Assembly (NCBI RefSeq): GCF_021295095.1
Contig: NZ_JAJLQX010000014.1
Location: 17,090 to 81,089 of the forward strand
Source: Phocaeicola oris
GTDB lineage: Bacteria; Bacteroidota; Bacteroidia; Bacteroidales; Bacteroidaceae
Length of the DNA: 64,000 nucleotides
Reading direction: 5' to 3'
Shown here: positions 1,419 through 58,437 of the stretch, in pieces
Position numbering within the stretch: the first letter of the stretch is position 1
Layout of the letters: each line of letters begins with the position of its first letter
Position numbers and translations under genes: made by a program
Notes under the pieces: model-generated
The model's database searches: none
Told to the model about the DNA's origin: nothing
The model's input: the letters and a program-made list of their open reading frames with translations, nothing else

Positions 1419-1780
1419 TTCTTTAGACAGAGATGTGTATGAAACATAAACAATGATATGGATTCAATGAGTTACAAGTATCTATCAATTGGATAACGGG
1501 TTCAGGTTGTTATACCATCAAAAGAACCCTAAAAGTGATACGTATAAACAAGTCGGCTCATCTATATGAGCTGGCAAATACTTCTGATGAATCAGGAAAC
1601 CAAACCTATCCGCATCTCTTCCCACACTTCTATGTATCGTAGCAGCAGCTTATATGGTTGTGTTCTGATTAGTTTTATAAAACTCTCTATAATTAAGTTA
1701 AAACCCGATTCTATTTAGCTTAATAGATTGCATTTCTTTCTCTTTTTCTATAATTTTACCCGAAAAATATAGGTGATAGC
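1419..1780. other. Intergenic region, no gene seen
   Basis: These 362 bp separate the sigma cluster from the NUDIX gene. No ORF with supporting features is visible on either strand. The middle holds a short copy of the 22-bp modular repeat (1533-1598), described separately. The last 100 bp are AT-rich and presumably contain the NUDIX promoter, but I could not pick out a clean TTTG/TAnnTTTG pair. Confidence 0.6.
1533..1598. repeat. 22-bp modular repeat, locus 1 (3 modules)
   Basis: Three consecutive 22-bp modules lie at 1533-1554, 1555-1576 and 1577-1598. The first carries the family head AAGTGATACGTAT. The second contains the inverted repeat GCTCA-TCTATA-TGAGC. The third contains CTTCTGATGAAT, which recurs at the same module positions in the loci near 34.06 and 52.56 kb. 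Confidence 0.6.
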
Positions 1781-2314
1781 ATGCATCCTTTAGAGCTATT
1801 CAAATACTGTCCGGAATGCGGTTCTTCTCATTTTGAAGTACATAATGGCAAATCAAAAAGATGTGCCAATTGTGGCTTTACATATTATTTTAATCCGAGT
1901 TCTGCTACCGTAGCCTTTATATTTAACGATAAAGAGGAGCTTTTAGTGTGTCGGCGCGGGAAAGAACCGGCAAAAGGAACTCTTGACTTGTCCGGAGGTT
2001 TTATTGATATAGATGAAACGGGAGAAGAGGGAGTAGTTCGTGAAGTGAAGGAAGAAACCGGATTGGATGTGGTTGAGGCATCTTATCTATTTTCATATCC
2101 GAACCGCTATTTGTACTCAGGCTTTTTGGTTCATACGCTTGATATGTTCTTTCTTTGCAAGGTGAGTAAAGCAGAACATGTAGAAGCCATGGATGATGTT
2201 GCTGATTCTTTTTGGCTGCCACTTGATAAAATTCGGGTGGAAGATTTTGGTTTAGAATCGGTCAGAAAAGGTTTATCACGATTTTTAAAGGAATACAAGA
2301 AAAATCTTAAATAA
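1781..2314 (+). CDS. NUDIX hydrolase with N-terminal zinc ribbon
   Basis: The 177-residue protein begins with a zinc ribbon (CPECG at about 10-14, CANCGF at about 29-34). A NUDIX fold follows with a complete box, GGFIDIDETGEEGVV then REVKEETGL, at about residues 70-94; the glutamates of REVKEE bind the catalytic metal. Family members cleave nucleoside diphosphates linked to another group. A zinc ribbon plus NUDIX is the layout of NudC/NADH pyrophosphatase relatives, but the NudC C-terminal signature is not evident, so the substrate is left open. It ends 10 nt before the TPR gene and may be co-transcribed with it. Confidence 0.9.
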   Translation: MHPLELFKYCPECGSSHFEVHNGKSKRCANCGFTYYFNPSSATVAFIFNDKEELLVCRRGKEPAKGTLDLSGGFIDIDETGEEGVVREVKEETGLDVVEASYLFSYPNRYLYSGFLVHTLDMFFLCKVSKAEHVEAMDDVADSFWLPLDKIRVEDFGLESVRKGLSRFLKEYKKNLK

Positions 2315-2324
2315 CCAATATAAT

Positions 2325-57282: not shown

Positions 57283-57337
57283 CAAATTCAAAAATGGATA
57301 AATTAAACTTTAAAAGAGTGATGTCGCATCCTATCTA

Positions 57338-57811
57338 TTATTTTATTCCTGCGTAAAGGGAATAATCCTGACGCATCTGCGTCGGAGCTCCCACTGCTTC
57401 ATAATTATTCGATTGATTATTCCATCGATAGGTGGTTACCGTAAGAGCATTATCTATAATAGAATTTTCACATTCTGTCTTTTGTACCGGAACATATTGC
57501 TCGGTTTTCTTATTCCATAGAGCATATAGTATGGTATACCCTTTATCGGAATAAGAAAATTCATATCTGTAACTGTATTCCCATTTCTGACTCGCTGCAT
57601 TCCAACGCAGAGTCTCCTTACTGATCAAGCGATGGGCCTCATCATACGTACATTTAGTTTTCACTTTATTCTTCAATAAATTGCCCGTTTTCTCGTAAAC
57701 TGTTGTAGTTGACACACGATCACTTTCCTGTTCCATATTGTGATAGAACTTAACATCTGCGGTATTCAAATTGAATGCCATTACTGCTGCTGCAAAAATT
57801 GATAGTAACAT
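57338..57811 (-). CDS. Small exported DUF3836-like protein
   Basis: The product is 157 residues from the first ATG (57811), with an Ala-rich hydrophobic stretch (MLLSIFAAAVMAFNLNTAD) and a body of YRYEFSYSDKGYTILYALWNKK-type beta strands (seen as RYEFSYSDKGYTILY). Proteins of this kind (DUF3836) are small secreted Bacteroidales proteins of unknown function. In frame upstream of the ATG the codons read ATT-AAA-AAT-AAG-ATT-ATT, which would supply a normal positive n-region (KNK) if ATT at 57829 were the start. A TGA bounds the frame at 57841-57839. Confidence 0.7.
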   Translation of the reverse strand: MLLSIFAAAVMAFNLNTADVKFYHNMEQESDRVSTTTVYEKTGNLLKNKVKTKCTYDEAHRLISKETLRWNAASQKWEYSYRYEFSYSDKGYTILYALWNKKTEQYVPVQKTECENSIIDNALTVTTYRWNNQSNNYEAVGAPTQMRQDYSLYAGIK

Positions 57812-58437
57812 AATAATCTTATTTTTAATTGTTAATAATCATATAGTTGTTCCGTTTCTGTATATTAGACATTTTAAAATGCTCTTTTATTACACGAAAC
57901 GCTTCGTTTATTTTTAGGCAATCGCCGTGCCAAACCAATTAAATAACTCATTATCAGTATTGTAATAGCTATGCCATCATAAAGAGGATGTCTAAATTTT
58001 ATACACATCCGTCCAATTCTTAGACAGACAACTCGTATCTGCAACACCCGCTTACAGCATGACAGATCAGTTCTAAACAGCAAATCTGCTTTTTAAAAGA
58101 CGATGGTTCAATAGGAAAAGATCATAAGCGAAAAGGATGGACGCGTAAGGTGATACGCATGAGCCAGGCGATTCATGCGGACGAGTTGGGCAATTCATGC
58201 GGATGAGTTGATCGATTCATCCGCATCAGTTTTGTGACTCATCCGTATAACTTTCGTATGTTATAAACAGACTTTATAACTTTTCTTTTTTACATGATTA
58301 ACATAAGAATGTAAAAAAACCGATTAAATGCTATGTTATGTCCGAAAAAAAAGCGAAATTTGCATTCGGTTAGTGCTGAACAGTTCGAACTATTTTTAAG
58401 TTGAAGACTATCAAATACATCATTAAAGAAAATCGAT
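57812..58437. other. Intergenic region upstream of enolase
   Basis: These 626 bp separate a minus-strand gene from eno. The repeat array at 58148-58257 lies in the middle. The last 180 bp should contain the eno promoter; a loose TATTTTTA is at 58390-58397, 41 nt before the ATG. No gene is supported. Confidence 0.5.
58148..58257. repeat. 22-bp modular repeat, locus 7 (5 modules)
   Basis: Modules start at 58148, 58170, 58192, 58214 and 58236. The head AGGTGATACGCATGAG is followed by ATTCATGCGGACGAGTTG, ATTCATGCGGATGAGTTG, ATTCATCCGCATCAG and ACTCATCCGTATAAC. The period is exactly 22 and the array is co-linear with the one at 14.7 kb. Confidence 0.8.

What the first reader, a model, noticed from the sequence alone, without database searches (positions are those of the whole stretch)
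1533..58257. A dispersed intergenic repeat superfamily with a strict 22-bp module and a folding core
Seven intergenic loci (1533-1598, 14714-14838, 27053-27074, 33879-34098, 46390-46477, 52465-52600, 58148-58257) are built from 22-bp modules placed end to end. Five of them open with a head close to AAGTGATACG[CT]AT. Body modules look like [AG]A[CT]TCATNCGNATGAG + TTGNNC, with a 5-4-5 inverted repeat at positions 3-16. Sequence varies while length, phase and pairing potential persist, which suggests selection on spacing or on RNA/DNA structure. The period equals about two helical turns. All seven share the same orientation in the window. This is not a CRISPR (no unique spacers) and I do not know a described family that matches.
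Basis: seen in the sequence. Interest (0 to 1): 0.85.

Follow-up and report, generated by a model that had tools for sequence, protein, structure and literature searches.

The report
Jumping element carrying 22-base-pair brick arrays
The repeats are the inner part of a small jumping DNA element, of a type known from a gum bacterium, that has spread to many places between genes of this gut bacterium; its 22-letter bricks keep a core and an exact spacing even where the rest of the element can no longer be detected, which hints that something in the cell reads them.

Summary
The 22-bp modules are real: 6 of the 7 loci are arrays, one (27053-27074) is a single brick. In 524 kb sampled from the genome, period-22 arrays occur 47 times; every other period from 9 to 49, except the multiple 44, occurs at most once. 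Extrapolation gives roughly 270 loci.

The bricks are the inner minisatellite of an IS982-derived MITE. Young copies have ~19-bp terminal inverted repeats (TTAACGTGAGTTCGAYGAA), 5-bp target duplications, leader, bricks and tail. The same terminus flanks an IS982 transposase end in a congener, and one copy here keeps a transposase remnant. This is the architecture of BrickBuilt (Porphyromonas gingivalis) with a different brick, period and inverted repeat.

The proposed RNA-structure selection fails: no pairing covariation, and arrays fold no better than chimeras of shuffled half-sites. Selection on spacing holds up: adjacent bricks differ by 784 substitutions in 136 intervals without an indel (70-105 expected from leader and tail), and eight dyad positions (TNATNCGNATNA) are 91-99% invariant; core identity is still 91% in arrays without detectable flank homology. 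Phased binding sites for an unknown protein is my inference. Some congeners carry 22-bp arrays with other stems. New variant of a known kind.

The parts
1533..1598 (-). two degenerate 22-bp bricks followed by the element's leader motif CTTCTGATGAAT (1581-1592); decayed element
14692..14841 (.). array of type-F1 bricks (core TNATNCGNATNA) between convergent genes
27053..27074 (.). single F1-like brick between convergent ORFs (ending 27050 and 27079); probably a remnant
33879..34130 (-). element remnant: F1-like bricks, then type-F2 bricks (GTTTCACNNNNGTGAAAC, about 33923-34054), then leader motif 34059-34070; strand taken from the leader motif
   Evidence: (nhmmer with young MITE copies, E 1.1e-22 on + and 7e-22 on -, nearly equal because the bricks are palindromic)
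46346..46477. array of F1 bricks between nagB-like and pfkA-like convergent genes (gene names from my reading, not from a family search)
52362..52606 (-). remnant of the MITE: F2 bricks (52469-52556), leader motif 52561-52572, and further element sequence
   Evidence: (nhmmer E 8.4e-25, minus strand)
58148..58257 (+). array of five F1 bricks in a divergent gap; strand from brick composition only

Best explanation
The repeats are the internal minisatellite of a non-autonomous transposable element (MITE) derived from, and presumably moved in trans by, an IS982-family insertion sequence. SHOWN: a complete young element is about 410-455 bp and consists of a terminal inverted repeat, a leader ending in TTCATCARAAGA, a run of 22-bp bricks, a tail (TCTCTTTATGA...) and the opposite terminal repeat, flanked by 5-bp duplications of AT-rich target. 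Brick number varies between near-identical copies, so arrays grow and shrink by whole units. Arrays lie almost entirely between genes and are about four times as frequent in convergent gaps as in other gaps. SHOWN: the brick core and the 22-bp spacing vary far less than the other brick positions, and spacing varies less than leader and tail predict. INFERRED: each brick is a dyad site for a dimeric DNA-binding protein. The protein would need consecutive sites on one helical face (22 bp, about two turns), and this keeps phase and core under selection after the element has ceased to move. Which protein, and whether it serves the element or the host, is unknown.
For: Terminal repeat TTAACGTGAGTTCGAYGAA (up to 3 mismatches): 67 sites in the own genome against 0 in the control, 12 of them about 105-130 bases from a contig end, where a multicopy IS would break the assembly. 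Five of six inspected paired-TIR elements show a matching 5-bp target duplication (ATCTT, AAATT, ATCTT, ATTTT, AATTT), read by eye; the sixth (L224) does not. The same TIR and the start of the leader directly abut the C-terminal end of an IS982 transposase in congener G019 (113-aa fragment, NF033520 E 5.6e-29, below the cut-off set for whole proteins; IS5 and IS4 models 1e-4 or weaker). One 654-bp copy (C1:1192-1845) holds both bricks and an IS982 N-terminal remnant between its TIRs. F1 bricks sit in the same leader/tail scaffold, and a young copy carries F2 and F1 bricks in one 22-bp register. In 38 F1 arrays found by periodicity, columns 4, 6, 7, 12, 13 and 15 are 94-99% and columns 9-10 are 91-92% invariant, against 36-85% for the other columns (183 distinct units; columns 4 and 15 were used neither for register nor for classing). 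No indel in 136 intervals with 784 substitutions; leader and tail give 0.136 and 0.091 gap events per substitution. 28 of 48 arrays have no flank homology by BLAST to any other of the 80 elements, yet the F1 arrays among them keep 91.5% core identity, against 95.1% with flank homology. Convergent gaps hold arrays in 16 of 69 cases, tandem 17 of 283, divergent 5 of 68 (convergent against the rest p 6.6e-5, against divergent p 0.016; with a longer ORF cut-off 17 of 68, 16 of 261, 7 of 68, p 5.5e-5 and 0.041).
Against: No complete copy of the cognate IS was found in the fetched stretches (about a fifth of the genome); the one complete IS982 gene found genome-wide (C13:15734-16444) belongs to a related IS with a different end. 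No DNA-binding protein was identified. Brick families differ between congeners, so any reader must change quickly. 27 of 48 arrays show neither BLAST flank homology nor a leader/tail profile match, so their membership rests on the bricks, some with a leader-like 12-mer by eye. Core constraint is partly ascertained: the arrays were found with a core-weighted score, and register and F1 class were set from AT, CG and AT of the core. Adjacent units are related by duplication, so substitutions and indels are not independent events. Where a core is lost, indels do occur (3 of 8 two-unit skips are 43 instead of 44).
Confidence: 0.75

Rival explanations
1. The bricks are internal binding sites for the IS982 transposase, comparable to subterminal transposase sites in other transposons (recalled), and are kept only because they help transposition.
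For: Bricks lie inside TIR-bearing elements. Congeners have other brick sequences, as expected if sites co-evolve with transposases.
Against: Arrays without detectable flank homology, hence probably long immobile, still keep the core (91.5%). A MITE-like pair of TIRs without visible bricks exists (C2, about 47.80-47.96 kb).
Confidence: 0.2
2. Neutral minisatellite: bricks expand by slippage, carry no function, and look conserved because they derive from one founder.
For: Whole-unit copy-number changes among near-identical elements and homogeneous runs in several arrays. BrickBuilt also gains and loses whole bricks (PMC4596501).
Against: Column-specific constraint within arrays (1-8% minority bases at core columns against 12-41% elsewhere) and the lack of indels are not expected from slippage or gene conversion, which act on whole units.
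Confidence: 0.2
3. The arrays act as RNA: bidirectional terminators or 3'-end stabilisers formed by the hairpins.
For: Five window arrays tested on both strands fold better than dinucleotide shuffles (z -2.7 to -7.4). Enriched between convergent genes. Within-unit mismatches in 24 of 80 arrays orientable by leader or tail are 88 G.U against 21 A.C.
Against: No covariation between half-sites in five pairing schemes; a sixth, mirror pairing, gives only z 1.6. Real arrays fold no better than half-site chimeras. The G.U excess can be a founder effect, and in 5 of the 24 the marker disagrees with the brick-based strand. By eye element orientation does not follow gene orientation.
Confidence: 0.1
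4. REP/BIME-like palindromes mobilised by a RAYT (Y1 tyrosine transposase).
For: Palindromic, intergenic, an estimated few hundred loci, arrays.
Against: No PF01797 match in this genome (95% complete), nor in G001, G005, G006, G025, G029 or G073 (6 of 61 genus genomes have one). IS982-type terminal repeats and target duplications are present instead.
Confidence: 0.03

Closest known systems
BrickBuilt MITE of Porphyromonas gingivalis (Klein et al. 2015, PMC4596501; abstract, first two of nine parts, first half of the homology section, structure and location sections read)
   Same: Tandem bricks without spacers inside a MITE with leader and tail, terminal inverted repeats and short target duplications; intergenic; brick number varies; leader and tail erode from the outside; conserved and non-conserved sites within the brick; found in one species and its close kin.
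   Different: Brick 23 nt (AGAYCATARTATCCTCTCRTRTG) against 22 bp with a TNATNCGNATNA or TCACNNNNGTGA core; TIR GAGACCTTYGCA against ACGTGAGTTCGA; 19 copies against an estimated 270; BrickBuilt arrays have 0-6% insertions and deletions and their variable sites gather in the second half of the brick, whereas here variable and invariant columns alternate symmetrically and spacing is exact.
MITE239 and ISPg3 of P. gingivalis (Table 2 of PMC4596501)
   Same: Terminal repeats ACGTGAGTTCGAT... (MITE239) and ACGTCAGTTCGA (ISPg3) match the core of this element's TIR.
   Different: The paper finds no mini- or microsatellites in the MITEs of this group; it files ISPg3 under IS5, whereas the transposase ends seen here match IS982 best.
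MITECca01 of Cardinium (PMC9769881; 12 passages read)
   Same: Abundant IS982-derived MITE in a Bacteroidota genome, mostly intergenic.
   Different: About 240 bp; the word 'tandem' does not occur in the paper's text.
REP/BIME elements of Enterobacteria and pseudomonads (recalled; only starts of abstracts of PMC3733652 and PMC3116915 seen in listings)
   Same: Intergenic palindrome clusters in hundreds of copies.
   Different: RAYT-mobilised (recalled); no RAYT here.

Membership tests
MITE (IS982-derived) | short, non-autonomous, terminal inverted repeats | tested here: met
   409-454-bp copies with paired TIRs; 67 TIR sites against 0 control
MITE (IS982-derived) | target-site duplication | tested here: met
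   5-bp duplications at 5 of 6 inspected elements, by eye
MITE (IS982-derived) | ends shared with an autonomous IS | tested here: met
   TIR next to an IS982 C-terminus in G019; IS982 N-terminus inside one own copy; no complete cognate IS seen
MITE (IS982-derived) | present mobility | not testable with these tools
   one genome per species held; near-identical copies suggest recent spread
BrickBuilt | MITE with leader, tandem bricks and tail | tested here: met
BrickBuilt | 23-nt brick of given sequence and TIR GAGACCTTYGCA | tested here: not met
   22 bp, different sequence; TIR ACGTGAGTTCGA
BrickBuilt | bidirectional promoter activity | not testable with these tools
   needs reporters or RNA-seq
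REP/RAYT | cognate Y1 (RAYT) transposase in the genome | tested here: not met
   PF01797 not found in G000
CRISPR array | unique spacers between repeats | tested here: not met
   bricks abut directly; adjacent cores exactly 22 bp apart
Structured RNA family (Rfam) | match at the gathering score | tested here: not met
   only three tRNAs in the window

The most novel reading that the evidence does not exclude
The brick arrays are a chromosome-wide set of phased operator sites read by an unknown dimeric DNA-binding protein (nucleoid, insulator or silencer type), domesticated from an IS982 MITE. Across the genus the site sequence is rewritten while the 22-bp, two-turn spacing is kept.
Probability: 0.3. 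Interest if true: 0.8.

Novelty: new variant of a known kind. Interest (0 to 1): 0.55.

Why it matters
Minisatellite-bearing MITEs, which in the papers I saw are described from Porphyromonas, also exist on an IS982-type scaffold in another Bacteroidales genus, at an apparently much higher copy number. The exact spacing and column-specific core conservation give a directly testable case of mobile-element satellites becoming, or serving as, phased protein-binding arrays. Practically, these elements break short-read assemblies and could be misread as regulatory RNA or CRISPR relics.

Tried and rejected
RNA covariation: five pairing schemes plus the mirror scheme and a half-site chimera folding test gave nothing (whole-stem z -1.7 to +0.4; single key pairs -2.6 to +1.6; mirror +1.6), so structural selection was dropped. 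The G.U/A.C asymmetry was kept only as weak evidence because of founder effects.

RAYT/REP: rejected. Rfam: only tRNAs. Plasmid and phage collections: no match to a young copy. Viral contigs: 0 for the F1 two-unit pattern. The genome-contig scan with the exact pattern found only one Chryseobacterium locus; its output warns that near records of the own genome may be left out.

Positional conservation: nagB was not found in the flanks held beside pfkA in the 19 congener loci. One ortholog pair (G006 array L163; G000 C11) was informative, and G000 has no array within about 12 kb there.

Restriction avoidance as the reason why NCGN is never CCGG: CCGG is not depleted in the sampled genome (ratio 1.22), so not supported.

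A first, loose TIR scan (4 mismatches plus wildcards) was no better than shuffles and was replaced.

Rows dropped: 4 of 48 arrays before the gene-context count: one false positive (C11a:65020), two off-register calls at window F2 loci, one half of a locus called twice; so the window F2 locus at 33.9 kb is not in that count. Five of 48 in the core comparison. Leader/tail pairs under 60% identity and the young copies were left out of the gap ratio (28 tail pairs, 10 leader pairs).

The extrapolation to about 270 loci rests on 48 arrays in 524 kb. Contigs C2, C11 and C18 were fetched because searches had hit them, so it may be high. The relatives' stretches were also picked for pattern hits; those were not.

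Full report
OBSERVATION. The head motif has 7 matches at 5 places in the window against 0.11 expected. Six of seven loci are arrays; 27053-27074 is one unit. The bricks at 33.9 and 52.5 kb (GTTTCAC NNNN GTGAAAC NNNN) are a second type with the same 7-4-7-4 layout and are inverted relative to one another.

SCALE. The window lies in a draft genome of 2.98 Mb, G000 C5:17090-81089. A degenerate two-unit pattern matches 600 times forward and 603 reverse with up to 3 mismatches (nearly palindromic, so mostly the same sites); its reversed control matches 0 and 0. In 523,916 bases taken from this genome (window, C11, C2, C18) a motif-blind autocorrelation scan finds 47 clusters at period 22, 33 at the multiple 44, and 0 or 1 at every other period from 9 to 49. 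A core-weighted detector finds 48 arrays, hence roughly 270 per genome (inference; C2, C11 and C18 were chosen because they had hits).

HOST. The congeners G011 (one contig of 5,163,189 bp) and G017 (contig C1 of 4,242,803 bp) have the lengths I recall for Phocaeicola vulgatus ATCC 8482 and P. salanitronis, so the genus is probably Phocaeicola (inference from recall).

THE ELEMENT. Aligning flanks showed a shared leader and tail (outputs cut) and terminal inverted repeats. The repeat TTAACGTGAGTTCGAYGAA has 67 sites (up to 3 mismatches) against 0 in the control; 12 of them lie about 105-130 bases from a contig end, as expected when an assembler breaks at a multicopy IS. Six paired-TIR elements were inspected. 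Four of them, including the one used as query, are 93-100% identical to it and 409-454 bp long, with 3 to 5 F2 bricks. Five of the six have 5-bp target duplications, read by eye. A young copy contains F2 and F1 bricks in one 22-bp register. F1 bricks sit in the same scaffold in L005 (leader only), L015, L016, L022, L078 and L079. A profile of the young copies finds the window loci at 52362-52606 (E 8.4e-25) and 33869-34130 (best E 1.1e-22).

PARENT. One 654-bp element (C1:1192-1845) carries bricks and, between the same TIRs, an IS982-like N-terminus (NF033520; E 3.7e-6, E 6.9e-6). A second, decayed IS of this kind begins at C5:15702, about 1.4 kb left of the window; its 82-aa fragment alone gave no NCBIfam match, and a weak IS982 match further on lies on the other strand. 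In congener G019 the TIR and the leader's first bases abut the C-terminus of an IS982 transposase (E 5.6e-29). The first 28-45 bases of the MITE recur in 11 of 60 congeners. No RAYT gene (PF01797) was found. Conclusion: an IS982-derived MITE with an internal minisatellite.

PLACEMENT. Of 44 arrays used (4 of 48 dropped), 39 (ORF cut-off 90 aa) or 41 (120 aa) lie in gaps between called ORFs. Convergent gaps hold arrays in 16 of 69 cases, tandem 17 of 283, divergent 5 of 68 (convergent against the rest p 6.6e-5, against divergent p 0.016, ORF calls by a simple script). This fits tolerance away from promoters and does not by itself show a terminator role.

CONSTRAINT. In 38 F1 arrays among 47 found by periodicity, 183 distinct units show columns 4, 6, 7, 12, 13 and 15 at 94-99%, columns 9-10 at 91-92%, and the other columns at 36-85%. 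Within arrays, minority bases are 1-8% at core columns and 12-41% elsewhere. Register and F1 class were set from columns 6-7, 9-10 and 12-13, so these are partly ascertained; columns 4 (99%) and 15 (94%) are not. Adjacent exact cores are 22 bp apart in 136 of 136 intervals of 18-26 bp. These carry 784 substitutions and no indel, whereas leader and tail show 0.136 and 0.091 gap events per substitution (10 and 28 pairs), so 70-105 indels would be expected. Spacing 21 has 0 matches in the whole genome; 23 has 0 in the sample. Against this, 3 of 8 two-unit skips measure 43 instead of 44, so indels do occur where a core is lost. 28 of 48 arrays have no BLAST flank homology to any other of the 80 elements; one of these has a tail by profile (C11b:304750), and several show a leader-like 12-mer by eye. 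The F1 arrays among the 28 keep 91.5% core identity (found with a core-weighted score). Selection on core and spacing is my reading; duplicated units are not independent, so no p-value is claimed.

STRUCTURE TEST. Five window arrays fold well on both strands (z -2.7 to -7.4), as any palindromic array must. At variable stem positions the halves do not covary. Within-unit pairing is 5.61 against 5.65 of 7, with the two key position pairs below expectation at z -2.6 and -2.4; the other schemes range from z -2.1 to +1.6. Real arrays fold no better than chimeras (mean z +0.26 and +0.35, 66 arrays). A G.U excess (88 against 21 A.C) in the 24 of 80 arrays orientable by leader or tail is the only hint towards RNA and may be a founder effect.

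CONGENERS. The own-genome pattern matches 10 of 61 genus genomes including its own; three of the ten (G011, G017, G024) have a single match. In 20 stretches fetched around hits in six of the others, period 22 again stands out (19 clusters against 0-3 at other periods from 14 to 30), with other stems: ACACGTACGTACGTGT-type in G005, AAAAGATACGTATCTTTT in G006, AACCGTACGGTT in G073 and also G017, TCACATAGGTGA in G071. Not every one of the 19 is a clean palindrome. Unselected stretches of congeners hold few: 1 per 80 kb in G011 and in G017 (where periods 14, 21, 23, 27 and 28 also score 1), 0 in G076, G007, and the 40-kb samples of G005 and G001, 1 in 40 kb of G006. Whether these are relatives or independent inventions of the same layout is open. 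A Chryseobacterium MAG has a single four-unit array of F1-like bricks.

MECHANISM. The element moves with IS982 transposase (inferred from TIR, target duplications and remnants). Bricks multiply and shrink by whole units (shown by copy-number differences). A dimeric protein bound at successive dyads two helical turns apart would explain constraint on core and phase but not on outer stem pairs (inferred). Whether the protein is the transposase or a host factor is undecided; persistence in copies without detectable flanks favours a host factor.

NOVELTY. The nearest described thing is BrickBuilt (PMC4596501: abstract, opening parts, half of the homology section, structure and location sections read). 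Brick, period and TIR differ, so it is the same kind of element but not a member. IS982-derived MITEs are known from Cardinium (PMC9769881, passages). Among the papers listed by my eight library searches none is about 22-bp brick MITEs in Phocaeicola or Bacteroides; three of the listings were capped, and the library holds only open-licence papers.

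Noticed in passing
window 55398-55682: Three tRNA genes (same score, GTT anticodon by eye) in a 95-bp tandem duplication, the first two units identical.
   Followed up: no
G000, sampled 524 kb: GATC and GGCC occur at about half the Markov expectation (0.53 and 0.50), suggesting restriction avoidance.
   Followed up: no
F1 bricks, G000: The centre NCGN is never CCGG (0 of 334) and rarely GCGC (7), although ACGT is common (43); CCGG itself is not depleted in the genome. 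Unexplained.
   Followed up: partly
L036:1100-1190 (Chryseobacterium MAG NZ_JARBTK010000002.1): A single four-unit 22-bp array with GCGC cores, near the F1 consensus, in a genome named Chryseobacterium; the only place matched in that genome.
   Followed up: partly
G000 C2:47800-47960: A 160-bp TIR-flanked MITE-like element without visible bricks.
   Followed up: no
L005, L018, L030 right flank; C18 left end: Another repeat (TTTACTAGACACTTTTTTGCTACATTAGC...) abuts several brick arrays near contig ends: probably a second multicopy element that inserts at these arrays.
   Followed up: no
G000 C13:15500-16530: Complete IS982-family gene (309 aa) of a different IS (ends ACGCGAGTTCGGG / CCCGAACTGGCGT by eye) directly beside a brick element.
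   Followed up: partly
G006 L161, L162, L163, L164, L255: Species-specific 22-bp arrays bounded on one side by (A)CGTTCCTAATNATT or its complement, perhaps the end of another small element.
   Followed up: no
G000 C11b:322917, C2:7425, C2:41811, C11a:132011: A third 22-bp brick type (CACGNNCGTG-like core) in the same genome.
   Followed up: partly
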